Part shown: in pieces, positions 3,350 through 49,476 of the stretch
Layout of the letters: each line of letters starts with the position of its first letter
Numbering within the stretch: position 1 is the stretch's first letter
Source of the DNA: Demequina subtropica
GTDB taxonomy: Bacteria > Actinomycetota > Actinomycetes > Actinomycetales > Demequinaceae
Assembly (NCBI RefSeq): GCF_000971235.1
Contig: NZ_BBMB01000006.1
Coordinates: forward strand, 65,876 to 115,385
Length of the DNA: 49,510 bases
Direction of reading: 5' to 3'
The notes under the pieces: generated by a model
What the model saw: the letters and a program-made list of their open reading frames with translations, nothing else
Databases searched by the model: none
What the model was told of the DNA's origin: nothing
Translations under genes and position numbers: made by a program

Positions 3350-3744
3350 GCACTACCTGCCAGGTCGATGAACACGTCGCCATTGTCGAGGCTCACCCGG
3401 TGAACGACCAAGTCCGCCGCGCGCCCCTCCTTCGGCTGCTTGTCCATCGTGACCAGGCAGGTCCCGTCGAGGAGGGAGAACACCTGCTTGTAGATCGGCG
3501 ACGCGATCGTGGGGACGTCGCCCTTGGAGCCCGTGATCCCCCGCGACAGCACCGAGGCGCCGGAGAACGGATCGAGGTTCTGCACGCAGTGGAGCGAGCC
3601 GTCCGCGAGCAGGAAGATCGCGACCTGCTCGCCGTCCACGAGCGCCGCCACGCCGAGCTCGGGCGTGAGGTCCGCGAGCGCGCACACGCGGGTGGGAGCG
3701 GACGTGCCCGCGGTGGACGATGCGGTGGGCAGGGTCGCGGTCAT
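3346..3744 (-). CDS. nirD: Nitrite reductase (NADH) small subunit NirD
   Basis: A 132-residue protein with the NirD hallmark segments NLDPFSGASVLSRGI, ASPIYKQVFSLLDG and HRVSLDNGDVFIDL. NirD has a Rieske-like fold without the cluster-binding Cys/His pairs, and none is visible here. It is the small subunit of cytoplasmic NADH-dependent nitrite reductase, partner of the NirB gene directly upstream. The ATG at 3744 overlaps the nirB stop by 4 bp, and its stop overlaps the cysG start, so it is translationally coupled on both sides. The Thr/Ala/Ser-rich first 17 residues look disordered. Length is slightly above the usual 105-120 residues because of that tail. Confidence 0.93.
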   Translation of the reverse strand: MTATLPTASSTAGTSAPTRVCALADLTPELGVAALVDGEQVAIFLLADGSLHCVQNLDPFSGASVLSRGITGSKGDVPTIASPIYKQVFSLLDGTCLVTMDKQPKEGRAADLVVHRVSLDNGDVFIDLAGSA

Positions 3745-7801: not shown

Positions 7802-9999
7802 CGTGCCGCTCCTTCCAGCTCCGTCGCGGGGCGCAGCTGGTGCGCCGCGCGGATCGAGACGGCCGTGACCTTGAACTCGGGCATCGACGAGGTCGGGTCG
7901 GTCGCGTCGTTGGTGAGCCGGTTCGCGCTGCCCGCGCCCGCCCAGTGGAAGGGCATGAAGACCGTGTCGACGCGGATGTCCATCGTGAGGCGCACCCGCG
8001 CCATCGCCTCGCCGCGGGACGTCGCGAGGAACGCGACCGCGCCCTCCGTCAGCCCGTGCCGCTCGGCGAGCAGCGGGTGCATCTCGACGAAGGCCTCCGG
8101 CTGGGCCTGCACCAGCTCCCTGACGCGGCGCGTCTGCGCGCCCGACTGGTAGTGCTGGAGCACGCGGCCCGTTACCAGGTAGGTGGTCGCGCCGGGACGG
8201 ACCTCGTCGTCGGGACCCCGGTGCGCCACCGGGATCATCCGCGCCCGGCCGGAGGGCGTGGGGAACCTGTCGAGGAACGGGCGCGGCGTGCCCGGGTGGG
8301 GCTCGTGCCCGAGGTCCGCGGCCGGGCATGGCCAGAACAGCTCCTCGCCCGCGTCGAGCCGGGCGTAGGTGATGCCGCTGTAGTCGGCCTTGCCGCCGGC
8401 CGAGGCACGGGCCATCTCGTCGAACATCGTCTCCGCGTCGTCGCTGAAGAGGGCGTCGCACCCGAGGCGCCGGGCCAGCTCCCCCAGGATCCACAGCTCG
8501 CTGCGGGCCTCGCCCGGGGCCGCGACGGCCGCACGACGGCGGATGATGCGGCCCTCGAGGTTGGTCATGGTGCCGTCCTCCTCCGCCCACTGGGTGACGG
8601 GAAGGATCACGTCGGCGAGCATCGCCGTCTCGGACGGCACGAGGTCGCACACGACCAGCAGGTCGAGCGCCCGGAGGCGCTCCTCGACCGCGGTCGCGTT
8701 CGGCGCGCTCACCACGACGTTGCTGCCGTGCACCAGGAGCGCGCGCGGGCCGCCCGGGGTGCCGAGCGAGCTCAGCAGCTGCACGGCGGGAACGCCGGGG
8801 CCGGGGATCACCTCGGGATCGACGCCCCAGACCGACGCGACATGAGCGCGCGCGGCGGGGTCGGTGATCATCCGGTATCCGGGGAGCTGATCGGACTTCT
8901 GGCCGTGCTCGCGTCCGCCCTGCCCGTTGCCCTGGCCGGTGACGGGCCCGTAGCCGGAGCCGACGCGGCCCACCAGGCCCAGCGCGAGCGCGAGGTTGAT
9001 CGCGGCGTTCACGCAGTCGGTGCCCTGCGCCATCTGCTCGACCCCGCGCCCCGTGAGGATGTAGGCGCCCCGGCCGCCGCGCGAGGGGGATGCGGCGGCC
9101 AGGAGTCGCGCGACGTCGCGAAGCGTGTCGGCGGGGATCCCGGTGACGGCCTCGGCGCGCTCGGGCCACCACTGGGCCACCGAACGGCGGGCGTCGTCGA
9201 GGCCGTCGACCCGCGCCGCGAGGTACGCGGCATCGTGAAGGCCCTCGGCGAGGACGATGTGCAGCAGCGCGAGCAGCACCACCATGTCGGAGCCGGGCAC
9301 GGGCGCGAGGTGGACGCCCGCGCCGCCGGCGGCGAGCTTGGCGGTCACGGTCGCGCGGGGGTCGACCACGACCAGCCCCCCACGCGACCGCACCCCCGCG
9401 AGATGCTGGACGAACGGGGGCATCGTGGTGCCCATGTTCGATCCGAGGACGAGCACCGCATCGGCCCCGCCGAGGTCCGCGAGCGGGAAGGCGAGGCCGC
9501 GGTCCATGCCGAGCGCGCGGTTCGAGGCCGCGGCGGCCGACGACATGCAGAAGCGGCCGTTGTAGTCGATGAGCCGCGTCCCGAGCGCGAGCCGCGCGAA
9601 CTTGCCGAGCGCGTACGCCTTCTCGTTGGTGAGGCCTCCCCCGCCGAACACGGCCACCGCATCGTCCCCGGACTCCGCCTGGAGCGCCGAGATCCGCGAC
9701 GCGACCAGGTCGAGGGCCTCGTCCCACGAGGCCTCGCGGAAGCCGCGATCCGCGGTCCGGATCATCGGTGCGGTGATGCGGTCGGAGGCACGGAGCACCT
9801 CGGCCGAGGTCCAGCCCTTCTGGCACAGGCCTCCGCGGTTGGTGGGGAACTCCCGCCCCGCCACCGTGACGGGGAGGCGCTCCCCCGCCGTCACGGTGAG
9901 CGTCTGCGCGCACTGGAGCGCGCAGTAGGGGCAGTGGGTGGCCACGGCGGCGGCGGCGTGGGGAGCCGCCGCCACCGTGGCCGGCTGGGGGGCCGTCAT
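7798..9999 (-). CDS. nasA: Assimilatory nitrate reductase catalytic subunit (molybdopterin oxidoreductase)
   Basis: A 733-residue member of the DMSO reductase family. An N-terminal [4Fe-4S] motif CPYCALQC (Cys23, 26, 30) with Cys59 in GGLCQKG is followed by the molybdopterin domain: NGRFCMSSAAAASNRALGMD, VLVLGSNMGTTMPPF, and AINLALALGLVGRVGSGYGP. The C-terminal dinucleotide-binding domain contains YLVTGRVLQHYQSGAQTRR. It should reduce nitrate to nitrite in the cytoplasm; no Tat signal is seen. It resembles NarB/NasA/NasC enzymes rather than respiratory NarG (much shorter). The gene overlaps the FAD subunit by 4 bp and sits 1 bp after narK. The symbol used differs between species (nasA, nasC, narB). 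Confidence 0.93.
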   Translation of the reverse strand: MTAPQPATVAAAPHAAAAVATHCPYCALQCAQTLTVTAGERLPVTVAGREFPTNRGGLCQKGWTSAEVLRASDRITAPMIRTADRGFREASWDEALDLVASRISALQAESGDDAVAVFGGGGLTNEKAYALGKFARLALGTRLIDYNGRFCMSSAAAASNRALGMDRGLAFPLADLGGADAVLVLGSNMGTTMPPFVQHLAGVRSRGGLVVVDPRATVTAKLAAGGAGVHLAPVPGSDMVVLLALLHIVLAEGLHDAAYLAARVDGLDDARRSVAQWWPERAEAVTGIPADTLRDVARLLAAASPSRGGRGAYILTGRGVEQMAQGTDCVNAAINLALALGLVGRVGSGYGPVTGQGNGQGGREHGQKSDQLPGYRMITDPAARAHVASVWGVDPEVIPGPGVPAVQLLSSLGTPGGPRALLVHGSNVVVSAPNATAVEERLRALDLLVVCDLVPSETAMLADVILPVTQWAEEDGTMTNLEGRIIRRRAAVAAPGEARSELWILGELARRLGCDALFSDDAETMFDEMARASAGGKADYSGITYARLDAGEELFWPCPAADLGHEPHPGTPRPFLDRFPTPSGRARMIPVAHRGPDDEVRPGATTYLVTGRVLQHYQSGAQTRRVRELVQAQPEAFVEMHPLLAERHGLTEGAVAFLATSRGEAMARVRLTMDIRVDTVFMPFHWAGAGSANRLTNDATDPTSSMPEFKVTAVSIRAAHQLRPATELEGAAR

Positions 10000-14776: not shown

Positions 14777-15690
14777 GCGCGGCCCATGAGGCGCTCGGCG
14801 CCGCGGCCCAGGAGCGAGAAGCCGCTCGACCGGCCGATCGACGCGGCCTCGGCCACCACACCCGTGTTGCGCTCGTTGAGCGCGAGCGCGCCGTCCGTGG
14901 AGATGACGCGTGTGTGGAGCGTCAACCGACCGCGCACGACGGTCGCGTGCGCCGCGACGGGCGCGGCGCAGCCAGCGTCCAGCACGCGCAGCGCCTCGCG
15001 CTCCGCGGTCACGCACGCGCGGGTCTCGGCATGGTCGAGCGTCGCGAGCAGCGTGCGCAGCTCGTCGGGGGCGTCCTCGCGGATCTCGATCGCGAGGGCG
15101 CCCTGACCCGGTGCCGGGACCATGTCCCCGACCGCGAGCGGCGCCGTCGCATCGTCCGCGCGGCCCAGGCGGTTGAGGCCCGCGGCCGCGAGGAGGACCC
15201 CGTCGAGGTCCTCGCCGATGTGGCCGAGCCGCGTGTCGACGTTCCCCCGCAGCGGGCGGATGTCGAGGTCGGGTCGCATCGCGAGCAGCTGCGAGCCCCG
15301 GCGGGGCGAGCCCGTCCCGATCGCCGCGCCCGCGGGCAGCTCGTCGAGCGTGCGCCCGTCGGTGCACAGCACGTCCCTGGGGTCCTCGCGCTCGGGGATC
15401 GCGACCACCTCGAGGCCCGGGTACGGCTGCGTCGGGACATCCTTGAGCGAGTGCACGATGAAGTCGCACTCCCCCGCGAGCAGCGCCTCGCGCAGCGCGG
15501 TGACGAACACGCCGGTCTGGGACAGCCCGACGAGCGAGCCGCGGTCGACGTCCCCCTTGGTGGTCACCTTCACCAGCTCGACGGTCGCCTCGGAGCCGCG
15601 CGCCGCCGCGGCGGCGACGACCGCATCGGCGAACTGCCCCGACTGTGCCGTCGCGAGCGCGGATCCACGGGTGCCCAGACGGAGATTCAT
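14773..15690 (-). CDS. hemC: Porphobilinogen deaminase (hydroxymethylbilane synthase)
   Basis: A 305-residue protein beginning RLGTRGSALATAQSGQFAD, with IVHSLKDVPTQPYPGLEVV, IGTGSPRRGSQLLAMRPDLD and the cofactor-binding Cys in VLDAGCAAPVAAHA. It polymerises four porphobilinogens into hydroxymethylbilane. It is the first gene of the hem operon. On the minus strand a TACCCT box (-10-like) ends only a few bases before the ATG at 15690 and I see no Shine-Dalgarno, so the message may be leaderless. Confidence 0.96.
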   Translation of the reverse strand: MNLRLGTRGSALATAQSGQFADAVVAAAAARGSEATVELVKVTTKGDVDRGSLVGLSQTGVFVTALREALLAGECDFIVHSLKDVPTQPYPGLEVVAIPEREDPRDVLCTDGRTLDELPAGAAIGTGSPRRGSQLLAMRPDLDIRPLRGNVDTRLGHIGEDLDGVLLAAAGLNRLGRADDATAPLAVGDMVPAPGQGALAIEIREDAPDELRTLLATLDHAETRACVTAEREALRVLDAGCAAPVAAHATVVRGRLTLHTRVISTDGALALNERNTGVVAEAASIGRSSGFSLLGRGAERLMGRA

Positions 15691-17632: not shown

Positions 17633-18214
17633 TCAGTCCTCCCGGCGCTGGCGGAGCGCGATCGTGAGCGCGAGCGCCGCGGCGGCGACCACGCCGATGA
17701 TGACGTACACCGCGGGGTTGGGCCCGACCTCCTCGTACACGGTCACGTGCGGGCTCGGGCTCGCGGTCACCACCGGGCCCGCGGCCGCCGACGGCTCCAC
17801 GGTCGCCGACGGGCTCGGCTCCGCCGGGCCGGACGCCTCGACGGGCGCGTAGGTGAACGTCACCTCGCCCTCGATGGGGTGGCCGTCGGCCGACACGACG
17901 CGGAAGGCGAGGATGTTCTCCCCCGCCGCGAGCGCATCGTCCGGGACGGCGGCGGTCACCACCTCGGTCACCGGCGCGTCGATCTCGAGCGCGGTGCGCG
18001 TCCCGTCGGGGGCGACGATCGCGAGCTCGTTGCCGATGTCGAGCAGCTGCTCGGTGAACTCGAGCGAGACCTCGGACAGCTCCGTCACGGTCTCGCCCTC
18101 CGCGGGCGAGGACGAGACAAGCGCGGTGTGGGCCGAGGCGGGCGCCGCGACCACGACGGCCGCCAGGAGCGACACCGCGAGGGCGGCCAGGAGCGCGGGG
18201 ATCGTGCGAGGCAT
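17633..18214 (-). CDS. CopC-domain secreted/membrane-anchored protein
   Basis: A 193-residue protein from the ATG at 18214 (GGGAGG nine bases upstream). It has an N-terminal signal peptide ending ASA, so the mature protein starts at the AHTALVSSSPAEG segment, whose His resembles the copper-binding N-terminus of CopC. The CopC/YcnJ-like beta-sandwich follows (SLEFTEQL, LAFRVVSADGHPIEGEVTFT, with the His of DGHPIEG). Then comes a Pro/Ser/Ala linker, one membrane helix (AVYVIIGVVAAAALALTIAL) and RQRRED, so it is anchored outside. It may bind copper; no copper pump is in the window. Confidence 0.85.
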   Translation of the reverse strand: MPRTIPALLAALAVSLLAAVVVAAPASAHTALVSSSPAEGETVTELSEVSLEFTEQLLDIGNELAIVAPDGTRTALEIDAPVTEVVTAAVPDDALAAGENILAFRVVSADGHPIEGEVTFTYAPVEASGPAEPSPSATVEPSAAAGPVVTASPSPHVTVYEEVGPNPAVYVIIGVVAAAALALTIALRQRRED

Positions 18215-34327: not shown

Positions 34328-35638
34328 TCAGCCGATCTCGATCTGCGCGCCCACCTGCAGAGCGGTGCGGCTGAACGGCACCTTGTCCTGCGCGTCCCAC
34401 GCCGTCGAGCCGTCCTTGCCGGTCCACGCGTTGAGGTTCGCCCCAAGCGTTCCCGCGAGCGTGCCGCGCACGCCGTGGTCCCCTGGCTCCGAGGTGTCGA
34501 GGTCGGTGAGGTCCCACACCACGGGGAACGATGCGGTCCCGCCGCCGTGCAGCCGCGCCTCGGCGAACGCCGGGAGGGCGACGTCGAGCGCCTCGACGGA
34601 CGTGCCCGCCGAAGCCGCGACCACCCCGAGGTCCGTCCGGACGGGACCCGCCGCATCGGCCCGCCGCAGGGCGTCGTGCCGGTCTCGCGTGAGCCCCAGG
34701 ATCCCGCCGTGCTTGGTGGCGGCGCGCAGCGAGAACCGCGGGCTGTCGAGCGGAGCCCACGGGACGTCCGCGTCGAGGTCCGTCGAGACCATCGGCCTGT
34801 AGCCCACCGAGGGGATGACGTCCACGTAAAGGTACCAGCGGTCCTCACCGTGAGCCTTGAACATCGTGGGGCCCTCGACACCGTGCCCGGCGGCGTAGCC
34901 CTCGCCGATGCGGGTCTGGACCTCGCGCCACGCGGCGCCCGGCTCCCACCAGCGCTCGGCCTCGGTGACCTCCATGAACAGGCCGCGACGCGTCGCGCCG
35001 TTGGACTTGGTCACGCGGTAGGTCCGGCCGCCACGCTGGATCATCGTGGTGTCGATGGTGTCCTCGCCCTGGTCGAGGAGCACGCCCCCGTAGGCCCACG
35101 TGGACTGCGTGAAGTCCGTGGTGGAGCCCCACAGGATCACCTGGTGGTCGCCGACGGTCGACGTCCAGTACACGACGAAGGCTCCCTGACCCGCGCCGTG
35201 GAAGTCGGGCACGAACGTCGTCTCGGCGGCCCACATCATGCCCATCTCGGGCGCACCGGCGGCAGGCTCGCCGGCAGGACCGCGCGCCACGTCGATCTGG
35301 CGCAGCGGCGACCACGTGATGAGGTCGCGCGACTCCCACACGTTCATGCGGGTCGAGTAGCCGTGCGACCAGCCCGCCCAGCCCGCATCGTCCCCGCCGA
35401 AGACCCGCAGGTCGGTGCCGAGGATGTAGTAGACCCCGGTCTGCGGGTTCACCGTGAGGTGCGGGTCGCGCACGCCGGTGGTGCCCAGGTGGGACGCGAG
35501 CACGGGCGCCCCGCCGTTGAGCGGGACCCATCGCTCGGGGTCGTCCCCGTCGGAGAGGTCGAGGTAGATCTTCTCGGCATAGCCCTCGGGGTCCTCGAGG
35601 AAGTGGACCATGAGGTACCCGTAGGGCTGGTCCGTCAT
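34328..35638 (-). CDS. GH43-like beta-propeller glycosidase with C-terminal Ig-like domain
   Basis: A 436-residue protein without a signal peptide. The five-bladed propeller begins YGYLMVHFLEDPEGYAEKIY and has candidate catalytic acids in GVRDPHLTVN (Asp), AFVVYWTSTV context, and HGVEGPTMFKAHG (Glu general acid). Residues about 345-420 resemble a Big_4 Ig-like domain (LPAFAEARLHGGGTASFPVV, DLDTSEPGDHGVRGTLAGTL). It is probably an alpha-L-arabinofuranosidase or xylosidase acting on imported oligosaccharides. The ATG at 35638 overlaps the upstream GH43 gene by 4 bp. Confidence 0.85.
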   Translation of the reverse strand: MTDQPYGYLMVHFLEDPEGYAEKIYLDLSDGDDPERWVPLNGGAPVLASHLGTTGVRDPHLTVNPQTGVYYILGTDLRVFGGDDAGWAGWSHGYSTRMNVWESRDLITWSPLRQIDVARGPAGEPAAGAPEMGMMWAAETTFVPDFHGAGQGAFVVYWTSTVGDHQVILWGSTTDFTQSTWAYGGVLLDQGEDTIDTTMIQRGGRTYRVTKSNGATRRGLFMEVTEAERWWEPGAAWREVQTRIGEGYAAGHGVEGPTMFKAHGEDRWYLYVDVIPSVGYRPMVSTDLDADVPWAPLDSPRFSLRAATKHGGILGLTRDRHDALRRADAAGPVRTDLGVVAASAGTSVEALDVALPAFAEARLHGGGTASFPVVWDLTDLDTSEPGDHGVRGTLAGTLGANLNAWTGKDGSTAWDAQDKVPFSRTALQVGAQIEIG

Positions 35639-37518
35639 GCCACGACCACGGTGACCGCGACCTCGCGCAGCTCGGGCAGCAGCTCCTCGTCGGTCTCCAT
35701 GTCGAGCACCGGCATGCCGTCCGCCGCGAAGTGGACCCGGCGCACGAACATGTCGCGACCGGTGAGGCCCTTGTGGTCGGTGCGCGCGTGGAACACGTAC
35801 AGCAGGTTCCCGTCCTGGTCCTCGGACCACATGCCGTGGCCGGTGCCCAGCTGCATCTCGCCGTTGAACGGGCCGGACTTCTGGATCGGGTAGTTGAGGC
35901 GCGTCCAGGCGGCCGGGTCGGTGAGGTCGACGCCCTCGCCGGCGGTCGCGGTCACCAGGCCGGTGGTGTAGCTGTCGCCCACGGTCGAGCCCGAGTAGAG
36001 CATCCACAGGCGGCCGTCGCGCACCAGCACGTTGGGGCCCTCGGCGATGAAGTTGTCCCACGCATACTCCGGCGCGACGATGCGCACCGGCTCGGAGGTG
36101 AGTCGCGTCGGGTCGGCGGGGTCCATGGTCGCGACGAAGACGCTGCCGAGCATCTGCCAGGCGTAATAGTGCAGCCCGGAGTCCTGGAAGTACGTCATGT
36201 CGAGCGAGATGCCCTGGATCGTGTTGAGCGGCGAGCCGTCGGCGCAGACCACGTGGCGCGCCGCGGTCCAATGCTCGGGCACGGTCGGGTCGAGGTGGTT
36301 CCCGGACTCGTCCTTGCGCAGCTGGACGATGCTCGCACGGCCGGACCACATGTCCGTGGGCTCTCCGTAGGAGGGCATGAAGAGGATCGACAGGGTGCCG
36401 TCGATCAGGTGGATCTCGGGCGCCCAGAAGCAGCCGGTCATGGGGTTGCCGTCGGCGTCGAGCGAGCCGTGGACCAGCAGGTCGACCTCGGCGACGCGCC
36501 CGGCCTCGAGCGCCTCGTCGGAGAGGTCCTCGATGCGGTCCGCCATGCGGATCGGCATGCCCACGGGCTCGCCAGCGTTGTTCACCGGGTCCATGTGGAG
36601 GTCCTTGGTGGCGATCATGAGGAACTTCTGCACACCGTTGAAGTCGAAGCGGTAGACGCTCGGATCGGCGCGCTCGTCGGCGAACGGGGTCGGGTAGACC
36701 TCCTGGCGGACGCGGCCGTTCACCACATGCTCGCCCGGAGCCGTGGTGTCGATCGCGGCGATCGCCTCGGCGTCCCACCCGATCGCGAGCGAGCCGGTCG
36801 AGCCGTCGCTGTAGTCGAGCTCGAGGCGCGCGGGCAGGGCGTCCGCCGAGAGCGAGCCCCCGACGGCGACCTCGACGGCAGGCAGCGGGCGCGCACCCGT
36901 GTTGACGATCGGCCCGAAGCGGACCTCGAGGCCTCGCGCGACCTCGGCGGGGATGGCAAGGGGCGCGCCGGGCTCGAGGCCGGGGACGCCGCCGGGCTCG
37001 GCGGGGCTGACGGTGCCGCCGTCCGCGGGATCGGTGACGGCGGCGTGCCGAGCCTCGCCCGCATCGTCCGTCCAGGACACGAGGTACGTGTCGCTCTCCG
37101 CGTCGTAGACGGCGGCGGGACGATGCACGCCGTCGGTCACGCCGAGGTCGAGCAGGCCGAGCTCGGTGTAGGTGAGCAGGTCCGGCGAGACCGCGACGAG
37201 GACGCTCGAGCGCTCGGTGCCGTCGGGCCCGCCCCCGCGCGCCACCCGCGTGGCGACCACGCCGAAGCCGCCGTCACGCATGCGGAACAGGTGCGGGTCG
37301 ACCAGCGACCGCATGATCTCCTCGGTGGTGCCGGCCGGTCCGGGGACCTCCGAGACGAGCGGGAAGAAGATGCCGTAGTCGTCGAACAGCGGTGCGAAGC
37401 CGTCGGGGCCCTCGAGCGCGAGGTGCAGGCTCAGCGCGACGTCCTCGTTGTTCGCCTCCGCGGCGGTCGTGGGCGTGCGGTGGTAGGCGCGGACGCGGCG
37501 CTCCGTCGAGTCGGTCAC
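35635..37518 (-). CDS. Composite GH43 glycosidase: partial propeller, Ig-like domain, full GH43 domain
   Basis: A 627-residue protein from the GTG at 37518 (AGGAG seven bases upstream). Residues about 25-165 look like part of a GH43-type propeller (SLHLALEGPDGFAPLFDDYG, SLVDPHLFRMRDGGFGV). Residues about 190-275 resemble a Big_4 Ig-like domain (ARLELDYSDGSTGSLAIGWD). Residues about 280-610 are a full GH43 domain with RADPSVYRF (Asp base), CFWAPEIHLIDG, ISLDMTYFQD (Asp) and IAEGPNVLVRDGRLWMLYSG (Glu acid). There is no signal peptide. A likely alpha-L-arabinosidase; it is translationally coupled to the next GH43 gene. Confidence 0.85.
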   Translation of the reverse strand: MTDSTERRVRAYHRTPTTAAEANNEDVALSLHLALEGPDGFAPLFDDYGIFFPLVSEVPGPAGTTEEIMRSLVDPHLFRMRDGGFGVVATRVARGGGPDGTERSSVLVAVSPDLLTYTELGLLDLGVTDGVHRPAAVYDAESDTYLVSWTDDAGEARHAAVTDPADGGTVSPAEPGGVPGLEPGAPLAIPAEVARGLEVRFGPIVNTGARPLPAVEVAVGGSLSADALPARLELDYSDGSTGSLAIGWDAEAIAAIDTTAPGEHVVNGRVRQEVYPTPFADERADPSVYRFDFNGVQKFLMIATKDLHMDPVNNAGEPVGMPIRMADRIEDLSDEALEAGRVAEVDLLVHGSLDADGNPMTGCFWAPEIHLIDGTLSILFMPSYGEPTDMWSGRASIVQLRKDESGNHLDPTVPEHWTAARHVVCADGSPLNTIQGISLDMTYFQDSGLHYYAWQMLGSVFVATMDPADPTRLTSEPVRIVAPEYAWDNFIAEGPNVLVRDGRLWMLYSGSTVGDSYTTGLVTATAGEGVDLTDPAAWTRLNYPIQKSGPFNGEMQLGTGHGMWSEDQDGNLLYVFHARTDHKGLTGRDMFVRRVHFAADGMPVLDMETDEELLPELREVAVTVVVA

Positions 37519-38590: not shown

Positions 38591-39250
38591 TCAGCCCGCC
38601 TCGCCGCGGGCGCGCGCGACCACCCGTCCGCGCTGCGAGCGGGGGAAGCGCGCGAGCATGTCACGCAGCTCGTCCGCGGTCGCGTCCGAGCCGAAGACGT
38701 CGGTGGGCGGCTCGAGCATCACCCCCGCGGACAGCGGTCCCGCATCGACGGGGTCGAAGCCCATCGCGTCCACCAGGGCCGCGACCACGGCCCTGTCCCT
38801 GGCATCGTCGCCCGCGATCGCGAGCCCGCGGCGGTCGGGATGGCCGGCCGGGTGCGCGAGGTTCTCGAGCTCCCACACGCTCGCATGGTTGAAGGCCTTC
38901 ACCACGCGCGCGCCATCGAGGAACGCGGCGACCGTCTCGGACGTGGAGGTGCGCGGGTCGTCGAGGTCGGGCCGCGCGCCGTCGAGCTCCCACCAGTAGT
39001 TCATCGCATCGACCACCAGGCGGCCCCGCAGCAGGTCCTTCGGCAGCGTGCGGTACCGCCCGAGGGGCACTGCCAGGATCACCACCTCCGCGGCGCACGC
39101 CGCCGCGGGATCGTCGCGGGACGATGCAGCGTGCACCTCGAGCCCGGCGTCGCGTGCGAGCCGTGCCAGCACCGTCCCGACCCGGCCCGTGCCGAGGATC
39201 CCCACCGTGCGCGGCAGCGCCGCCTGGCCGCCGTCCCGCGCATCGTCCAC
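38591..39250 (-). CDS. NADPH-binding protein, F420-dependent NADP reductase (Npd/COG2085) family
   Basis: A 219-residue protein with an N-terminal Rossmann loop VGILGTGRVGTVLARLARDA and the family segments AEVVILAVPLGRYRTLP and VVKAFNHASVWELEN, RGLAIAGDDARDRAVVAALV. Many members of the family are annotated as coenzyme F420-dependent NADP+ reductases, but others are of unknown function. Both start and stop lie close to neighbouring genes (2 bp from glycerate kinase), so it belongs to that transcript. Confidence 0.8.
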   Translation of the reverse strand: MDDARDGGQAALPRTVGILGTGRVGTVLARLARDAGLEVHAASSRDDPAAACAAEVVILAVPLGRYRTLPKDLLRGRLVVDAMNYWWELDGARPDLDDPRTSTSETVAAFLDGARVVKAFNHASVWELENLAHPAGHPDRRGLAIAGDDARDRAVVAALVDAMGFDPVDAGPLSAGVMLEPPTDVFGSDATADELRDMLARFPRSQRGRVVARARGEAG

Positions 39251-42176: not shown

Positions 42177-42665
42177 TCAGCGCTCGAAGCGCGTGACGTC
42201 CCTTCCCGCGAGGACCGTGCCGACGCGGCCCTGCATCTCGCGCGACAGGGGTGGAAGGGCGTCCTCGTCGAACCAGGCGACCTCGGAGTTCTCGCCGTCG
42301 GCGGGATGCGGGTCCCCGCTGACGTACCGGAACCGGAACGTGAGGTCCAGGAACTGGACCCGGTCGCCGTTCGGGTACGTCGCGGGCGCCTGCGCGTGGA
42401 CCCACGCGAGGGCCTCGGGCTCCGCCACCACACCCGTCTCCTCGAGGCACTCGCGTGCGGCCGCGACCGCGGGCTCCTCGCCGGGGTCGATGATCCCTCC
42501 CACGGCGGCCCAGACGTCGAAGTCGGGACGATGCGCGAGCAGCACCTGCCGCACGCCGGGGCGGCCGGGGGACGGGCGCAGCACCACCGCGGACGCGCTC
42601 ATCAGCCACAGCGGATGCGACCCGACCCGCTCCCGCAGCGCGAGGATGAAGCCCGGGGTCGCCAT
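42177..42665 (-). CDS. Nudix hydrolase (copy 1)
   Basis: A 162-residue Nudix protein. The complete Nudix box (Gx5Ex7REUxEExGU) is seen as GIIDPGEEPAVAAARECLEE followed by TGVV. The N-terminus MATPGFILALRERVG and the C-terminal FLDLTFRFRYVSGDPHPADG are shared with the neighbour at 42731-43219. It should hydrolyse a nucleoside diphosphate-linked compound with Mg2+; the substrate is unknown. Its paralogue lies 65 bp upstream in the same orientation. Confidence 0.92.
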   Translation of the reverse strand: MATPGFILALRERVGSHPLWLMSASAVVLRPSPGRPGVRQVLLAHRPDFDVWAAVGGIIDPGEEPAVAAARECLEETGVVAEPEALAWVHAQAPATYPNGDRVQFLDLTFRFRYVSGDPHPADGENSEVAWFDEDALPPLSREMQGRVGTVLAGRDVTRFER

Positions 42666-43242: not shown

Positions 43243-44001
43243 TCACGCGCCCGGCGCCTCGATCGTGGTCCATGCGGGATGCTTGGGCGTCCGGCCGTCG
43301 CCCGACGAGCGGCCCATGAGGCGGCGCCCGATCCACGGCAGCACGTAGCGCCCCAGGTATCGCGACTGCTCGAGCACCCCCGGTCGCCCGGGGTCGCCCG
43401 CCGGCGCGAGCGGCAGGTCCGTCTCGACGTCCAGCGCCGCGAGGACTCGCGCCGCGACGCGCGAGTGGCCCAGCGGGTTGAGATGCAGGCGGTCGTCGTC
43501 CCAGTACGCGGCGCGGCGCATCTCGGGATCCCGGTAGTTGTCGACGAACGTGACGTGGTCGTGCGCCGTCGCGAGGTCGTCGATCAGCGTCATGAGCGGA
43601 TCGGCGCGCTCGGAGAAGGTGCGCCCACGCGGCAGCCGCTCCGTCGGGTCCGGTCCGGACAGGATCACCAGGCGCACCCCCGCCTCGCCCGTGCGGTCCA
43701 CGACGCGGCGCGTGAGGGTGTCGATGCGGGCGAGGTCCCATCCGGGCCTCATCATGTCGTTGCCGCTGCCGTTGAAGGTCATGAGGTCGGGACGCGGGTC
43801 GAGCGCCAGCGCCGCGTCGCACTGGTCGGTCGCGATCGGCTCGAGCAGGCGCCCGCGGATGGCGAGGTTCGCGTACTCGACGCTCCCGTGCGCCGCCGCG
43901 AGCCCGAGGGCCACAAGGTCCGCCCAGCCGCGCATCGTCCCATCCGGCTGCGGGTCCCCCACACCCTCGGTGAAGCTGTCCCCGATCGCCACGTATCTCA
44001 C
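43243..44001 (-). CDS. SGNH/GDSL-family hydrolase (second)
   Basis: A 252-residue protein with the SGNH blocks AIGDSFTEGVGD (Ser), NLAIRGRLL (Gly), FNGSGNDMM (Asn) and DDRLHLNPLGHSR (Asp/His). There is no signal peptide. I take the GTG at 44001 as the start, since VRYVAIGDS is the usual N-terminus in this group. The C-terminal 60 residues resemble those of the paralogue at 20568-21341 in arrangement. It lies downstream of the KstD-like gene, separated by a strong hairpin. Confidence 0.87.
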   Translation of the reverse strand: MRYVAIGDSFTEGVGDPQPDGTMRGWADLVALGLAAAHGSVEYANLAIRGRLLEPIATDQCDAALALDPRPDLMTFNGSGNDMMRPGWDLARIDTLTRRVVDRTGEAGVRLVILSGPDPTERLPRGRTFSERADPLMTLIDDLATAHDHVTFVDNYRDPEMRRAAYWDDDRLHLNPLGHSRVAARVLAALDVETDLPLAPAGDPGRPGVLEQSRYLGRYVLPWIGRRLMGRSSGDGRTPKHPAWTTIEAPGA

Positions 44002-44060: not shown

Positions 44061-45764
44061 CTAGGCCACCGCGGCGGCGTCGGGCGCCGGCGCGGGGGCG
44101 GGAGCATCGTCCCCCCGGTTCGCCGCGTGCGTGCCGGCGAGGTAGCCGAACACGAGCGCCGGGCCGAGCGTCGAGCCCGCACCCGGGTACGTGCGACCGC
44201 AGACGGCCGCCGAGGTGTTGCCCGCCGCGTAGAGCCCGTCGATGACCGTCCCCTCGGTGGACAGCACCCGCGCATGCTCGTCGGTGAGGAGCCCGCCCTT
44301 GGTCCCCAGGTCGCCGAGCACGATCTTGAGCGCGACGAACGGGCCGTGCGCGATCTCGCCGAGGTTGGGGTTGGGACCGTGGGTCGGGTCGCCGTAGTAG
44401 GTGTCGTACGCGTCGTGACCGCGACCGAAGTCGTGGTCGACGCCGTCGCGGGCGAACGCGTTGAAGCGCTGGATGGTCGCCTTGAACGTCGCCTTGTCGA
44501 CCCCCATCTTCTCCGCGAGCTCCTCGAGGGTGTCGGCCTTGACCGCGACACCCTCCTCGAAGAAGGTCTTCGACCCCATGAGGAAGGCGTTGTTGAGGTA
44601 GCGCCGACGGTGGCGCACGTCGAGGACCATCCAGCTGTGGTTGGTGCGCTCGAGCCCGCGCTCGATCATCGCGTGCCCGAAGTCGACGTAGCTGGTCGAC
44701 TCGTTCACGTAGCGGCTCCCCTCCTGGTCCACCACGATCGAGTACGGCATGGACCGCTCCGAGACGATGAAGGTGGGCCCGCCCTTGCTGGTCGGCGCGA
44801 CCGAGGGCCCCCACCACGCATCGTCCATGAGCGCGACGTCCGCACCGTGGCGCATGCCGATCTCGATGGCGCCGCCGGTGTTCGCGGGGTTGCCCGACGA
44901 CTGCTCGTCGGACAGCCCCTGGTACTCCTCGCGCCAGGCGGCGTTGTGGTCGAAGCCGCCCGCTCCGAGGTGCACGCCGCGCCGAGCGCGGATACGGCGC
45001 TCGCCCTCGGGGCCGGCGACGACGGCGCCGACGCACGCGCCGCCCTCCATCACGAGGTCGACCAACGGCGTCGAGAGCCTCACCTCGGTGCCCTGCTGCA
45101 TCTTCGCGATGTACATGAGCCGTGCCGCGAGCGACATGCCCAGCCCCGAGAGCTTGCGCGCGGTGACCGCGCCGCCGAGGGCACGGAACACCAGGCGCGC
45201 GCCGCCGACCATGCCGGAGAACGTCGACCAGGAGCGCGCGAGCAGGTACGTGTCCCCCGCGAACAGGGGCAGGCCGGGCGGCAGGGTCTCGCGCGCGTGG
45301 CCGTACCAGTCCCCCAGCTTCTTCACATCGAACGGCGCCGGCTCGACGGTGCGTCCGCCGGCGATGCCGCCGGGCAGGTCCGGGTAGTAGTCGGGGTACG
45401 CCTTCGCCGTCTTCCAGACGAGCCCGTGGTCCTCGAGCCAGGTGTGCACCAACGGCGCCGTGCGCACGAAGGCCTCTCGTCGCGCGAGGGACGATGCGGG
45501 CCCCACCTCCTCGGGAGTTCCCACGCACGCGTCGAGGTAGGTGAGGACCTTCTCCTCGGAGTCCTCGACGCCGATCTCCTTCATGCCGGGGTGCGTCTGG
45601 AGCCAGCAGCCTCCGCCGCTCATCGCGGTCGAGCCTCCCCACTTGTCGGAGCCCTCGACCACGAGCACGTCGAGCCCCGCATCCGCCGCGGCGATGGCGG
45701 CGGACATCGCCGCCGCACCCGTGCCGACCACCAGGAGGTCGACCTCCTCGTCCCATCCGGTCAT
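44061..45764 (-). CDS. FAD-binding 3-ketosteroid-Delta1-dehydrogenase-like protein (KstD family)
   Basis: A 567-residue flavoprotein of the fumarate reductase/KstD superfamily. The FAD fold is VDLLVVGTGAAAMSAAIAAA ... VEGSDKWGGSTAMSGGG. The KstD-like C-terminal motif YPGAGSTLGPALVFGYLAGT and the central SRYVNESTSYVDFGHAMIER, AYDTYYGDP are seen. In KstD this family removes hydrogens at C1-C2 of 3-ketosteroids. No other steroid genes are nearby, so the substrate is only inferred. The ATG at 45764 has AAGGGGAG upstream. The C-terminus is Ala/Pro-rich. Twin 20-bp palindromes lie just upstream. Confidence 0.82.
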   Translation of the reverse strand: MTGWDEEVDLLVVGTGAAAMSAAIAAADAGLDVLVVEGSDKWGGSTAMSGGGCWLQTHPGMKEIGVEDSEEKVLTYLDACVGTPEEVGPASSLARREAFVRTAPLVHTWLEDHGLVWKTAKAYPDYYPDLPGGIAGGRTVEPAPFDVKKLGDWYGHARETLPPGLPLFAGDTYLLARSWSTFSGMVGGARLVFRALGGAVTARKLSGLGMSLAARLMYIAKMQQGTEVRLSTPLVDLVMEGGACVGAVVAGPEGERRIRARRGVHLGAGGFDHNAAWREEYQGLSDEQSSGNPANTGGAIEIGMRHGADVALMDDAWWGPSVAPTSKGGPTFIVSERSMPYSIVVDQEGSRYVNESTSYVDFGHAMIERGLERTNHSWMVLDVRHRRRYLNNAFLMGSKTFFEEGVAVKADTLEELAEKMGVDKATFKATIQRFNAFARDGVDHDFGRGHDAYDTYYGDPTHGPNPNLGEIAHGPFVALKIVLGDLGTKGGLLTDEHARVLSTEGTVIDGLYAAGNTSAAVCGRTYPGAGSTLGPALVFGYLAGTHAANRGDDAPAPAPAPDAAAVA

Positions 45765-45785
45765 GCGTCTCCCCTTCGGGTCCAG

Positions 45786-45892: not shown

Positions 45893-46876
45893 TCAGCCCA
45901 TCTGGACCACGAGCGAGCCCCCGGCACGGCCGGAGCGGAGGTCCGCGAGCGCGTCCCCGACCCCGTCGAACCCGTAGGTGGTGACCGCCGGCGCGAGCCG
46001 CAGGTTCCGCGCCAGTGCCAGGAACTCCGCGCCGTCGGCTCGCGTGTTGGCCGTGACCGAGCGCAGGTCGCGCTCGTAGAACAGCGAGCGGTCGTAGTCG
46101 ATCTCGGGGATCGGCGACATGTGGATCCCCGCGCTCACCACCGTGCCGCCCCGCGCTGTCGCATCGAGCGCCTGCGTGAGGATCGCGCCGACGGGCGCGA
46201 AGACGATCGCCGAGTCGAGCACCTCGGGCGGGACGGCGTCCTCACCCCCGACGTAGTCCACCTCGAGCTCGCGCGCGAGCGCCTGGTTGCGCGCGCCCCG
46301 CGTGATCGCGAACACCGTCGCGCCGGCCGCCTTGGCGAGCTGCGCCGTGATCGACGCGCTCGAGCCGAAGCCGTAGATCCCCAGGACGCCTCCTGGCGGG
46401 AGCTGCGCACGCCGCAGGGCTCGGTAGCCGATGATGCCCGCGCACAGGAGCGGCGCGAGCGCGAGAGCCTCGTCGTCGTGCGGCAGGGGGTAGGCGTAGG
46501 ACTCGGGCACCGTGACCAGCTCGGCGTAGCCGCCATCGTGATCCCACCCGGTGAAGCTCGCGTCGGGGCACAGGTTCTCGCGGCCCGACCGGCACCAGCG
46601 GCACGTCCCGCACGTGCGATGGAGCCACGCGACGCCGACCCGATCGCCGAACCCGGTCGAGCGCACCGCGTCGCCGGCGCCCATCACCGTGCCGACCACC
46701 TGATGCCCCGGGACCACGCCGGGACGATGCACGGGCAGGTCACCGTCGATCACATGAAGGTCGGTGCGGCACACGCCGCACGCCTCGACGCGGACCAGAA
46801 GCTCGTCGGGCGCGGGCACCGGGTCGGGCGCCCCCTCGCGCCGGAGCGCACCGTCGCGCACCTTCCAGGCGTCCAT
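45893..46876 (-). CDS. Zinc-dependent alcohol dehydrogenase (MDR family)
   Basis: A 327-residue MDR enzyme with both zinc sites: catalytic VEACGVCRTDLHVIDGDLP plus GHQVVGTV, and structural CGTCRWCRSGRENLC. The nucleotide fold is VLGIYGFGSSASITAQLAKA. The closest group is the AdhP/AdhA-like class with zinc-binding alcohol dehydrogenase activity. The ATG at 46876 has GGAGG seven bases upstream. It reads toward KstD; the gap between them holds the KstD operators, so they are separate units. Confidence 0.92.
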   Translation of the reverse strand: MDAWKVRDGALRREGAPDPVPAPDELLVRVEACGVCRTDLHVIDGDLPVHRPGVVPGHQVVGTVMGAGDAVRSTGFGDRVGVAWLHRTCGTCRWCRSGRENLCPDASFTGWDHDGGYAELVTVPESYAYPLPHDDEALALAPLLCAGIIGYRALRRAQLPPGGVLGIYGFGSSASITAQLAKAAGATVFAITRGARNQALARELEVDYVGGEDAVPPEVLDSAIVFAPVGAILTQALDATARGGTVVSAGIHMSPIPEIDYDRSLFYERDLRSVTANTRADGAEFLALARNLRLAPAVTTYGFDGVGDALADLRSGRAGGSLVVQMG

Positions 46877-46910
46877 CGCGCACCTCCGAGACCAGTGAAA
46901 CACCGGGCGG

Positions 46911-46932
46911 GACGATGCGCCCGGGCATCGTC
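46911..46932. repeat. Inverted pair of the GACGATGC motif
   Basis: GACGATGC (46911-46918) and GCATCGTC (46925-46932) form an 8-bp stem with a 6-nt loop, in the gap between the alcohol dehydrogenase and the GH43 arabinanase. It is the only spot where two copies of the window-wide motif stand face to face. Confidence 0.6.
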
Positions 46933-47000
46933 GCCCCCGCCGCCACGCGGGGCCGCCGCGAGCCCCGAGGATGCTCGCAAACCTCCTATTGCGGGCGCCG

Positions 47001-47014: not shown

Positions 47015-47082
47015 GGTCACGAGCGGCGGGATCGATGCAGATCCCCGCAACATTCTCTGTCCAACGATGAACAGGAGATGAC

Positions 47083-49476
47083 GTGACCATCAGCCGCAGC
47101 GCGCGCCTCGCGATCGGGACGGTCGCCGCGACCGCGAGCCTCGCGATCGCCACGCCCGCATGGACCGCATGCGCCCCCGCGACGGGCTCACCCAAGCCGC
47201 ACCCGCACGAGGCACCCGCGCCGACCTTCACCGAGGCGACGGTCCACGACCCGTCGGTGGTGACCGCAGGCGACCAGGTCTGGGTCTTCGGCTCCCACGG
47301 GGCGTCGGCCTACACGACGGACCTCATGAACTGGACCCAGAACTCGGTCGATCTGAGCCAGGACCCGGACAACCCGCTGTTCGAGGACATCTACACCGAG
47401 CTCGCGGAGACCTTCGCCTGGGCCCAGACCAGCACGTTGTGGGCGGCGGACGTGATCCAGCTCGCCGACGGCCGCTACTACATGTACTACAACGCCTGCA
47501 AGGGCGACTCCCCCCGCTCGGCTCTCGGCGTCGCGGTGTCCGACGACGTCGACGGCCCATACGAGGACCTGGGCATCATCCTCAAGTCCGGGATGTGGGA
47601 CGAGGAGTCGGAGAACCCCGGCGAGATCTACGACGCCACCATCCACCCCAACACCGTCGACCCCGACACGTTCTACGACGCCGACGGCAACCTCTGGATG
47701 GTCTACGGCTCGTACTCGGGCGGCATCTTCATCCTGCAGATGGACCCGGCCACCGGCCTGCCGCTCCCCGATCAGGGCTACGGCACGCACCTGGTCGGCG
47801 GCAACCACGCGCGCATCGAGGCGCCGACGATCCGCTACGACGAGGAGACCGGCTACTACTACCTCTTCCTGTCGTACGGCGGCCTCGGCGCGGACGGCGG
47901 CTACGAGGTCCGGGTCGCGCGCTCGGAGAGCCCCGACGGCCCGTACGTCGACGCCAACGGCCACGACATGTCGACCGTGAAGGGCGCGGAGGGCACGCTG
48001 TTCGACGACGCCTCGATCCAGGACTACGGCGTCAAGATCATGGACGGCTACCTCTTCACGCGCGAGGTGGGCGACCCCGGCACGGGCGCGGGCACCGGCT
48101 ACGTCTCCCCCGGCCACACCTCCTGGTACGACGACCCCGACACGGGCGACTCCTACATCGTCCTCCACTCGCGCTTCCCAGGCACCGGCGAGGTCCACAA
48201 CGTGCGGGTCAACCAGATGTTCATGGACGCCGACGGCTGGCCCGTGGTGGCCCCGTTCCGGTACGCGGGCGAGTCCGACGGCCGCCTCAAGGCCAAGGAC
48301 GTGGCGGGCACGTGGCAGATCGTGGACTTCGACACGGCGATCAGCGCCGCACCCGCCCTCCCCGTCGAGGTCACGCTCGCGCCGAACGGCCGCGTCACGG
48401 GCGACCTCACGGGCACCTGGAGGATCGGCCGCGACAACGCCGCGACGCTGCAGACCTCCGACGGCACCTACACGGGCGTGTTCACCCCCGTGTGGGACGA
48501 CCAGCGCGAGACCTGGAGCGTCGGCCTCACGGTGCAGGACTCCACGGGCGACTCCCTGTGGGGCCGCCAGGTGGTGGTCCTGAAGCCCAAGGACGCGGTC
48601 GCCGCGGTCGCGGCGGACCTCGACCTCGGCGACACCTCCGCGGTGGTCGCCGATCTCGACCTGCCCACCACGGGAACGAGCGGCACCACCATCACGTGGG
48701 AGAGCTCGGACCCGGCGCACGTCTCCACCACGGGCGACGTGACCCGGCCCGGCGTGGGCGAGGACGATGCGACGGTCACCCTCACGGCGACCATCCGGAA
48801 CGGCAAGGTCACCACGACCGTCGCCTTCACCGTGGTGGTGAAGGCGCGCCCGGCCCCGGTGCAGGTGGGAGCGTGGTCGTTCGAGGGCACGCTCGCGGAC
48901 GATGCCGGCGCACTCGCCATGCCGACCGTCACCGGCGACCGCATCGACAACACCGGCGGCACGGTGTCGTACGTGGCCGACGGCGTCAGCGGATCCGCGC
49001 TGCACCTCGACGGCGCGACCGGAGTCCGGCTCCCGGACGGCCTCATCCAGGGCGACACCTACACCGTGTCGCTGTGGCTGCGACCCTCTGCGCTCACGCC
49101 GTACACCACCGCGTTCTTCGCGGCGAGCTCGGGCACGCAGTTCCTCAGCGTGGTGCCGCAGGGCTGGAACGGCGAGACGATGCTGTGGTCCAACAACAAC
49201 GGCACCTGGTACGACGGCTTCACCGGGCAGCTGCTCCCGCTCGACGAGTGGACGCACGTCGCCTTCGCGGTCGACGCCGGCGAGGTGACGCTGTACATCG
49301 ACGGCGTCGACGTGGGTGCGAGCAGCGCCTTCAACGACGTGCTCACCAGCCCGACCGCGCTGTTCGCGCTCGGCGTCAACTGGTGGGACACCCCGTTCCA
49401 GGGCGACATCGACCAGCTCGCGATGTGGACGTCCGCCTTGACCCCTGAGGAGATCGCAGACCTCGCCACGGCCTGA
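47083..49476 (+). CDS. Secreted GH43 endo-arabinanase with GH43_C2-like, Ig-like and LamG-like domains
   Basis: A 797-residue exported protein. Residues 1-30 are a signal peptide ending around ATPAWTAC; the Cys30 after WTA could be a variant lipobox. The GH43 propeller (about 45-400) has TVHDPSVV (Asp56), WMVYGSYSGGIFILQMD (Asp in the VDPDTFYDADGN context), and RIEAPTIRYDEETGYYYLFL (Glu). Then comes a GH43_C2-like beta-barrel (about 400-505), an atrophied Ig-like domain (about 506-585) and a LamG jelly roll (about 590-795; DTYTVSLWLRPSALTPYT, WTHVAFAVDAGEVTLYIDGV). The start is the GTG 47083 with AGGAG six bases upstream. It likely cuts arabinan outside the cell. Confidence 0.93.
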   Translation: MTISRSARLAIGTVAATASLAIATPAWTACAPATGSPKPHPHEAPAPTFTEATVHDPSVVTAGDQVWVFGSHGASAYTTDLMNWTQNSVDLSQDPDNPLFEDIYTELAETFAWAQTSTLWAADVIQLADGRYYMYYNACKGDSPRSALGVAVSDDVDGPYEDLGIILKSGMWDEESENPGEIYDATIHPNTVDPDTFYDADGNLWMVYGSYSGGIFILQMDPATGLPLPDQGYGTHLVGGNHARIEAPTIRYDEETGYYYLFLSYGGLGADGGYEVRVARSESPDGPYVDANGHDMSTVKGAEGTLFDDASIQDYGVKIMDGYLFTREVGDPGTGAGTGYVSPGHTSWYDDPDTGDSYIVLHSRFPGTGEVHNVRVNQMFMDADGWPVVAPFRYAGESDGRLKAKDVAGTWQIVDFDTAISAAPALPVEVTLAPNGRVTGDLTGTWRIGRDNAATLQTSDGTYTGVFTPVWDDQRETWSVGLTVQDSTGDSLWGRQVVVLKPKDAVAAVAADLDLGDTSAVVADLDLPTTGTSGTTITWESSDPAHVSTTGDVTRPGVGEDDATVTLTATIRNGKVTTTVAFTVVVKARPAPVQVGAWSFEGTLADDAGALAMPTVTGDRIDNTGGTVSYVADGVSGSALHLDGATGVRLPDGLIQGDTYTVSLWLRPSALTPYTTAFFAASSGTQFLSVVPQGWNGETMLWSNNNGTWYDGFTGQLLPLDEWTHVAFAVDAGEVTLYIDGVDVGASSAFNDVLTSPTALFALGVNWWDTPFQGDIDQLAMWTSALTPEEIADLATA

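What the first reader, a model, noticed from the sequence alone, without database searches (positions are those of the whole stretch)
3715..48905. Window-wide 9-mer GGACGATGC in 24 copies, in several reading frames
By hand I counted GGACGATGC at 3715, 18889, 27675, 30904, 36324, 37118, 39119, 42526, 45489, 46722, 46910, 48762 and 48897, and its complement GCATCGTCC at 9659, 15149, 17934, 18486, 27212, 35385, 37061, 39240, 43932, 44104 and 44818. At an assumed 72% GC, an independence estimate gives fewer than one copy in this length, so it is strongly enriched. About half spell Asp-Asp-Ala, but other copies spell HRP, ASS, IV or TM in other frames, and they use GAT, CAT, CGT and GCA, which look uncommon here. 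That points to selection or drive at the DNA level. It could be a Chi-like, uptake, methylation or nucleoid-protein motif; I know no such described motif.
Basis: partly seen in the sequence, partly recalled or inferred. Interest (0 to 1): 0.7.

Follow-up and report, generated by a model that had tools for sequence, protein, structure and literature searches.

The report
Likely DNA uptake tag in actinobacteria
A nine-letter DNA word occurs about 1,400 times in this high-GC bacterium's genome, is spelled differently in many of its sister species, and is likely a "take up your own kind's DNA" tag, a device described so far in two Gram-negative families.

Summary
GGACGATGC occurs 24 times here (shuffles 1.5) and 1,392 times in the 3.08 Mb assembly, against 18 for the letters reversed. 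It is a DNA-level signal: synonymous-codon shuffling gives 26.5 against 154 observed, all six frames are above expectation, and it is denser between genes. It has a strict core (CGATGC), softer flanks, no strand polarity and even spacing. Relatives carry other spellings: GGACGATGC is rich in 16 of 47 family genomes, GGCCGATGC in 18 of 47, CCCGACGCT in 2 of 47, with few changes on the species tree. Words with a GATGC core are among the top three de novo words in 17 named Microbacteriaceae loci and go with type IV pilus PilB (one-sided p 0.0006-0.04 inside that family, by cut-off). This genome has what looks like a full type IVa pilus operon, and comEA-comEC. Best explanation: a DNA uptake sequence with dialects, as in Neisseriaceae and Pasteurellaceae, but in Actinomycetota. 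Uptake is untested, the receptor was not found, and five motif-rich genomes lack PilB.

The parts
3715..3723 (+). GGACGATGC copy, intergenic by my gene calls
9659..9667 (-). GGACGATGC copy, spells DDA in gene 7798-9999(-)
15149..15157 (-). GGACGATGC copy, spells DDA in gene 14773-15690(-)
17934..17942 (-). GGACGATGC copy, antisense in ORF 17609-19450(+), spells IV; gene call uncertain
18486..18494 (-). GGACGATGC copy, antisense in ORF 17609-19450(+), spells IV; gene call uncertain
18889..18897 (+). GGACGATGC copy, spells DDA in ORF 17609-19450(+); gene call uncertain
27212..27220 (-). GGACGATGC copy, antisense in gene 27085-27843(+), spells IV
27675..27683 (+). GGACGATGC copy, spells DDA in gene 27085-27843(+)
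30904..30912 (+). GGACGATGC copy, spells DDA in ORF 29939-31057(+)
35385..35393 (-). GGACGATGC copy, intergenic by my gene calls
36324..36332 (+). GGACGATGC copy, antisense in gene 35635-37557(-), spells IV
37061..37069 (-). GGACGATGC copy, spells DDA in gene 35635-37557(-)
37118..37126 (+). GGACGATGC copy, antisense in gene 35635-37557(-), spells HRP
39119..39127 (+). GGACGATGC copy, antisense in gene 38591-39250(-), spells ASS
39240..39248 (-). GGACGATGC copy, spells DDA at the start of gene 38591-39250(-)
42526..42534 (+). GGACGATGC copy, antisense in gene 42177-42665(-), spells HRP
43932..43940 (-). GGACGATGC copy, intergenic by my gene calls
44104..44112 (-). GGACGATGC copy, spells DDA in gene 44061-45830(-)
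44818..44826 (-). GGACGATGC copy, spells DDA in gene 44061-45830(-)
45489..45497 (+). GGACGATGC copy, antisense in gene 44061-45830(-), spells ASS
46722..46730 (+). GGACGATGC copy, antisense in ORF 45893-47053(-), spells HRP
46910..46918 (+). GGACGATGC copy, antisense in ORF 45893-47053(-), spells ASS; left arm of the inverted pair 46911-46932
46911..46932 (.). inverted pair of the 8-mer core (GACGATGC ... GCATCGTC)
48762..48770 (+). GGACGATGC copy, spells DDA in gene 47083-49476(+)
48897..48905 (+). GGACGATGC copy, spells DDA in gene 47083-49476(+)

Best explanation
GGACGATGC(G) is a short word repeated about 1,400 times across this genome in all reading frames and on both strands, and it likely works as a DNA uptake sequence: a self-tag that the cell's type IV pilus/ComEA-ComEC import machinery would prefer when it takes up DNA. 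Shown: the enrichment, its DNA-level nature, the strict CGATGC core with softer flanks, the even unpolarised spread, the spelling variants (dialects) that follow the species tree, the related GATGC-core words in Microbacteriaceae, and genes for a type IVa pilus, ComEA and ComEC. Inferred: that a surface DNA-binding protein prefers the word; that biased uptake followed by recombination spreads and maintains the copies (molecular drive); and that a change in receptor specificity makes a new dialect. Not identified: the receptor.
For: Genome: 708+684 copies vs 6+12 for the reversed word; 198 vs 16.5 expected (order-3 Markov; 28.3 at order 4) in 449,510 bp. Synonymous-codon shuffle in 333 of 334 predicted genes: 154 vs 26.5, sd 4.3, max 38 of 100 shuffles; every frame above expectation, e.g. 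ASS 30 vs 0.83, GRC 5 vs 0.17. Density 0.63/kb intergenic vs 0.40/kb coding. Core: most substitutions in positions 4-9 are near background, six of nine in positions 1-3 stay at 2.3-3.5x. Even: 25 stretches of 20 kb, mean 8.56, variance 8.51; strand chi-square 27.0 on 25. Dialects; 4 changes on a 39-genome tree vs a mean of 18 for shuffled labels. Within a dialect, sites are kept more often than control 9-mers (0.34 vs 0.22; 0.19 vs 0.10), between dialects less often (0.02 vs 0.09; 0.03 vs 0.10) (pairs, not independent). Machinery: pilus operon, PilB-strength T2SSE match in 47 of 47 family genomes, ComEC in 46 of 47 (the miss is 85% complete), comEA-comEC in this genome. Microbacteriaceae (family checked for the 12 genera): GATGC words in the top three of 21 of 80 named loci, strongly in 17; GGATGCCGC up to 2,099 per genome; with PilB [[12,5],[7,26]] one-sided p=0.001 over 50 genomes, [[12,5],[2,8]] p=0.015 within Microbacteriaceae; other cut-offs 0.041 and 0.0006.
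Against: No uptake data exist. Five motif-rich Microbacteriaceae (M. elymi, Agromyces fucosus, two M. testaceum, Microbacterium APC3901) have no PilB-strength match, and seven PilB genomes show no strict motif. The z cut-off was set after seeing the list; dropping the weakest locus gives a two-sided p of 0.054 inside the family, and phylogeny inside the family is not corrected for. G004, G043 and G044 have pilus and comEC but no strong word. Neither the minor-pilin sets, nor the orphan pilin (no match found outside the pilus operon in G006 or G014, and only partial matches in G000 to proteins without the pilin N-terminus), nor ComEC (30 genomes) explains the second origin of the A dialect in G021/G029. 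In G000 the oddest fifth of 5 kb windows holds 31 of 229 copies (p=0.016), but there is no rank correlation (p=0.78), and three dialect-C genomes show no depletion (p=0.69); the least codon-adapted genes are not depleted. Inverted pairs are few (10 within 60 bp, of 319 8-mers). One unrelated word, GCTCGCGCT, is also above its codon shuffle (96 vs 41.7), though less so.
Confidence: 0.72

Rival explanations
1. The word is the binding site of an intracellular chromosome-organising, segregation or repair protein (nucleoid-associated, matS-like, Chi/KOPS-like), whose specificity drifted among species.
For: Genome-wide, intergenic and genic, lineage-specific. Five motif-rich Microbacteriaceae lack PilB. 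Receptor for uptake not identified.
Against: No strand polarity and no clustering in 25 stretches, unlike Chi, KOPS or matS as recalled. Association with PilB inside Microbacteriaceae. Dialects one letter apart with 1,000-2,000 copies each in many species would need very many sites replaced without the drive that recombination of imported DNA supplies (inference).
Confidence: 0.17
2. The word is a relic: it was an uptake sequence in an ancestor and is now decaying in some or all lineages, this one included.
For: Motif-rich genomes without PilB (M. elymi, Agromyces, M. testaceum), and intermediate counts such as Okibacterium 735 without PilB, look like persistence after pilus loss.
Against: Within-dialect conservation of sites exceeds that of control 9-mers, and this genome keeps an intact-looking pilus operon and comEA-comEC.
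Confidence: 0.06
3. Restriction-modification or methylation site (a HIP1-like iterated motif).
For: Short, genome-wide, differs between close species.
Against: Non-palindromic; restriction sites tend to be avoided rather than enriched (recalled); strict core with softer flanks is unlike a methylase site; the palindrome GCGATCGC, recalled as HIP1, is only mildly raised here (314 vs 182).
Confidence: 0.03
4. Codon, dipeptide or composition bias.
For: DDA is the commonest reading (68 of 154).
Against: Codon shuffle 26.5 vs 154, all six frames enriched, intergenic density higher.
Confidence: 0.02

Closest known systems
DNA uptake sequence (DUS) and its dialects, Neisseriaceae (Frye et al. 2013, PMC3630211; passages incl. 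parts of the abstract seen)
   Same: Short word over-represented genome-wide, genic and intergenic; dialects that follow the core-genome tree; an invariant short core (CTG there, CGATGC/GATGC here).
   Different: Sequence unrelated; actinobacteria; no ComP orthologue identified; uptake not tested; inverted pairs are few here.
Uptake signal sequence (USS), Pasteurellaceae, with dialects and a predicted pilin receptor ComN/PpdA (PMC12616744; passages seen)
   Same: 9-mer, genome-wide, dialects among related species, type IV pilus machinery.
   Different: Different word and phylum; [quoted passage not shown]
Natural transformation of Micrococcus luteus (PMC4322843; passages seen)
   Same: Actinobacterium with a transformation system that includes ComEA/ComEC homologues.
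   Different: Uses Flp/Tad pili; the terms 'uptake sequence' and 'uptake signal' do not occur in that paper's main text.
HIP1 of cyanobacteria (recalled)
   Same: Short, highly iterated genomic word.
   Different: HIP1 is a palindrome (GCGATCGC); this word is not, and has dialects with a strict core and softer flanks.

Membership tests
DUS/USS-type uptake sequence | short word massively over-represented genome-wide | tested here: met
   1,392 vs 18 control; 198 vs 16.5
DUS/USS-type uptake sequence | DNA-level signal independent of reading frame | tested here: met
   codon shuffle 154 vs 26.5, all six frames
DUS/USS-type uptake sequence | no strand polarity, spread evenly | tested here: met
   25 stretches: variance/mean about 1, strand chi-square 27.0 on 25
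DUS/USS-type uptake sequence | invariant core with softer flanks | tested here: met
   neighbour scan
DUS/USS-type uptake sequence | dialects that follow the species tree | tested here: met
DUS/USS-type uptake sequence | intergenic enrichment and inverted pairs at terminators | tested here: inconclusive
   density 0.63 vs 0.40 per kb; only 10 inverted pairs within 60 bp of 319 8-mers, 4 of them outside predicted genes, one of those 4 between convergent genes
DUS/USS-type uptake sequence | type IV pilus and ComEA/ComEC uptake machinery in the bearer | tested here: met
   for this genus; PilB not found in 5 of 17 motif-rich Microbacteriaceae
DUS/USS-type uptake sequence | a pilin receptor that binds the word (ComP, predicted ComN) | tested here: inconclusive
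   pilins found, but none tracks the dialect; sequence search against solved structures finds type IV pilins, no chain named ComP among the hits
DUS/USS-type uptake sequence | preferential uptake of motif-bearing DNA | not testable with these tools
   needs a transformation assay
DUS/USS-type uptake sequence | depletion in foreign DNA | tested here: inconclusive
   p=0.016 for the oddest fifth but no rank correlation in G000; p=0.69 in three dialect-C genomes
Chi / KOPS | strand skew along the replichores | tested here: not met
   both strands in each of the 20 stretches listed; chi-square over 25 stretches as for a coin toss
HIP1 | palindromic GCGATCGC-type word (recalled) | tested here: not met
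   the word is not palindromic

The most novel reading that the evidence does not exclude
Actinobacteria of the window's family and of Microbacteriaceae share an old system of self-tagged DNA uptake: one GATGC-type core, respelled into species dialects (GGACGATGC, GGCCGATGC, CCCGACGCT, GGATGCCGC, ACGGATGCC, GTGGATGCG), read by type IV pili, and acting as a barrier to gene exchange between dialects in a Gram-positive phylum.
Probability: 0.55. Interest if true: 0.92.

Novelty: new variant of a known kind. Interest (0 to 1): 0.83.

Why it matters
[quoted passage not shown] A dialect system in Actinomycetota would show that self-tagged uptake evolved again, or is far older, in cells without an outer membrane. 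It gives a natural comparison of many dialect-bearing species for finding the receptor, predicts which environmental actinobacteria may be transformable and with which tag, and could open genetics in genera that lack it.

Tried and rejected
Codon or DDA bias: rejected by codon shuffle, six frames and intergenic density. Replication-strand polarity: not seen. Minor pilins of the main operon as dialect determinant: at least two pilin sets, both found in both dialects. Orphan pilin as ComP analogue: no match outside the pilus operon in G006 and G014, and only partial matches in G000 to proteins without the pilin N-terminus (the metE neighbourhood of these three was not inspected); its types go, by eye, with the pilus operon type. 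ComEC: follows the species tree in 30 genomes, so it does not explain the second A origin. In-place conversion of sites between dialects: rare (in 5 of 457 site-genome pairs an A site reads as C). The closest pair, G000 and G006, shares only 1 of 3 sites in those eight genes (control 0.53), too few to weigh. A de novo scan of 20 kb pilus loci of the family is too short and too odd in make-up: the word or a variant tops only 6 of the 35 loci that passed. Literature: GGACGATGC as a string gives 207 papers, 20 listed, none of those 20 on bacterial uptake by title; 'DNA uptake sequence', 'Actinobacteria', 'natural transformation' 5 papers; 'uptake signal sequence' with 'Actinobacteria' 2; 'uptake sequence' with 'Actinomycetota' 0; five Gram-positive/competence terms 4, one of them on Veillonella, not read; DUS dialects 44, 20 listed; Micrococcus luteus terms 49, 20 listed; Microbacteriaceae or Microbacterium terms, 15 of 845 and 12 of 21 listed, none on this by title. 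The library lacks most subscription journals and all preprints.
Full report
What was checked. GGACGATGC is present 24 times in the window at exactly the stated places, with about 1.5 expected by shuffling or 1.7 by a third-order Markov model. It is the window's most enriched 9-mer.

It is genome-wide. The assembly that holds the window (3,075,577 bases, 23 contigs) has 708 forward and 684 reverse copies; the same letters read backwards occur 6 and 12 times. In 449,510 bases (window plus 20 stretches of 20 kb) there are 198 against 16.5 expected at order 3 and 28.3 at order 4. Substitutions at positions 4-9 (CGATGC) are near background, except tiny counts at position 5 (1 and 2 copies) and T at position 9 (14 vs 6.8); at positions 1-3 six of nine substitutions stay at 2.3-3.5 times expectation, one is depleted and two are at background. 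G follows in 77% of copies. The fuller consensus is GGACGATGCG.

It is a DNA signal, not a protein one. Among 333 of 334 predicted genes (one with N dropped), 154 copies stand against 26.5 (sd 4.3, maximum 38 of 100 shuffles) after synonymous codons are shuffled within each gene. By frame, observed and shuffled: DDA 68 and 7.3, ASS 30 and 0.8, IV 29 and 14.4, TM 11 and 3.4, HRP 11 and 0.4, GRC 5 and 0.2. Of the other words tried, GGACCATGC, GGACGAGGC, GGAGGATGC, GCACGATGG, GGGCGATGC and GGTCGATGC lie near or within the shuffled range; GGCCGATGC (54 vs 22.4) and the unrelated GCTCGCGCT (96 vs 41.7) are above it. Intergenic density is 0.63/kb (42 copies in 67 kb) against 0.40/kb in genes. In 25 stretches of 20 kb the count has mean 8.56 and variance 8.51, and strand use fits a coin toss (chi-square 27.0 on 25). 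The most codon-adapted quarter of genes has the lowest density (0.30/kb against 0.41-0.50). Genes come from my own simple caller, so single calls may be wrong.

Relatives respell it. In the 47 genomes of the family, 16 have 929-1,864 copies of GGACGATGC and the other 31 have 13-275. Of those others, 18 are instead rich in GGCCGATGC, with 584-2,018 copies; G018 has both words (1,294 and 664), and G000 itself has 487 of the second. CCCGACGCT, found de novo in G038, has 988 copies in G038, 335 in G027 and 9-124 in the other 45. Weaker variants: GCCGATGCC in G012 (32 vs 6.3), GCCGACGCT in G035 (19 vs 4.6), GGATGCCGA in G043 (15 vs 2.6). Of 396 genomes drawn from the order, none of the 361 outside the family exceeds 399 copies of GGACGATGC.

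The dialects sit on the species tree. A quick-method tree of four housekeeping proteins (39 of the 41 genomes held for that locus; G043 and G045 lacked genes, six of the 47 were not fetched there) needs 4 changes for three labels (cut-offs mine: A over 900, C over 550) against a mean of 18 for shuffled labels: one clade of 13 A genomes, C genomes in groups of 13 and 3, and a separate A pair (G021, G029) beside genomes without A. In eight aligned genes, motif sites are kept more often than control 9-mers within a dialect (A 0.34 vs 0.22; C 0.19 vs 0.10) and less often between dialects (0.02 vs 0.09; 0.03 vs 0.10). These are pairwise counts over few sites, so not independent.

The uptake machinery is there. 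G000 has an operon pilB-pilT-pilC-pilA-two pilins-a PilX-like protein-pilD-pilM-pilN-pilO between aroE and aroC (Pfam support for PilB, PilT, PilC and PilA; the other names, aro genes included, are by position and by eye). It has comEA-comEC about 26 kb from the window. A PilB-strength match is found in 47 of 47 family genomes and ComEC in 46 of 47.

Microbacteriaceae show the same kind of word. In 80 named actinobacterial loci from a HemB scan, words with GATGC are among the top three de novo words in 21 of 80, and at z of 8 or more in 17, all Microbacteriaceae (the family of the 12 genera in the set was looked up; the cut-off was set after seeing the list): GGATGCCGC in Microbacterium, Agromyces, Marisediminicola and Salinibacterium, ACGGATGCC or AGCGGATGC in Cryobacterium, GTGGATGCG in Schumannella. 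Jonesia, Ruania, one Cryobacterium and Homoserinimonas are the weak four. Genome-wide GGATGCCGC reaches 2,099 copies in M. elymi, 1,913 in Agromyces fucosus and 1,879 in Microbacterium Root180; the ten Microbacteriaceae without the strict word have 173-735, and the Arthrobacter, Nocardia, Streptomyces and Kribbella genomes examined 119-364. Over 50 of the 80 named genomes (all 27 Microbacteriaceae among them), 12 of 17 with the strict word have a PilB-strength match (E below 1e-130), 7 of 33 without (one-sided p=0.001); within Microbacteriaceae 12 of 17 against 2 of 10 (p=0.015). Without the weakest locus the latter is 0.041 one-sided and 0.054 two-sided; with all 21 loci it is 14 of 19 against 0 of 8, 0.0006. 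The search scored 31 candidates per genome, and the tests ignore phylogeny inside the family.

Results against. Five motif-rich genomes lack PilB and seven PilB genomes lack the strict word. The receptor is not found: pilin sets, the orphan pilin and ComEC do not track dialect. G004, G043 and G044 have the machinery but no strong word. Depletion in odd DNA is weak in G000 (p=0.016 for the oddest fifth, no rank correlation, p=0.78) and absent in dialect C (p=0.69); a 9 kb motif-free, low-GC stretch in L020 carries a Vsr-like reading frame, judged by eye only. Inverted pairs are not frequent.

Reading. Enrichment, frame independence, lack of polarity, a core with softer flanks and dialects on the tree are the profile of Neisseriaceae DUS (PMC3630211, passages) and Pasteurellaceae USS. 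A 2025 paper states that these two families are the only ones known to discriminate DNA in this way (PMC12616744, passage). I therefore commit to a DNA uptake sequence as the most likely function (0.72), with a chromosome-organising protein as the main rival (0.17). It works like a DUS; for membership the functional feature (preferential uptake) could not be tested.

Noticed in passing
L272-L291 (for example L273:2587-3003 +, L287:2616-3032 -): Many relatives carry a lone type IV minor pilin of about 138 residues outside the pilus operon; in the nine loci whose neighbours I listed it lies between a GNAT-like acetyltransferase gene and a metE-like gene (names by eye). No such match was found in G000, G006 or G014.
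   Followed up: partly
L315:1495-2235 (-), L320, L311: Proteins that, by eye, end in a pilin-like globular domain; the one in L315 has a DUF2510 head, those in L320 and L311 look alike.
   Followed up: partly
L212-L251: The type IV pilus operon between aroE and aroC comes in at least two very different minor-pilin sets that occur in neighbouring branches of the species tree, as if cassettes were exchanged.
   Followed up: partly
G043, G004, G001, G038 samples (L268-L271, L041-L044, L057-L060, L260-L263): The palindrome ATCGCGAT is about three and a half to five times over-represented.
   Followed up: no
family f20 (G098, G268, G238, G216): Another family of the order has mildly raised GGACGATGC (up to 399 copies); a variant word may be present there.
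   Followed up: no
L020:10704-20000: Low-GC, motif-free stretch beside and including a Vsr-like endonuclease reading frame (10385-10810, by eye), perhaps a defence island.
   Followed up: no
L068 (Microbacterium oryzae), L127 (Aeromicrobium terrae), L091 and L093 (Ornithinimicrobium, Arsenicicoccus): Other over-represented words: CGGATGGCC, GCCCAGGGC, CGGCATAC; they may be further dialects or unrelated.
   Followed up: no
41899-41979: Tandem repeat of a 24-base unit, 3.4 copies, just after the gene that I end at 41892.
   Followed up: no
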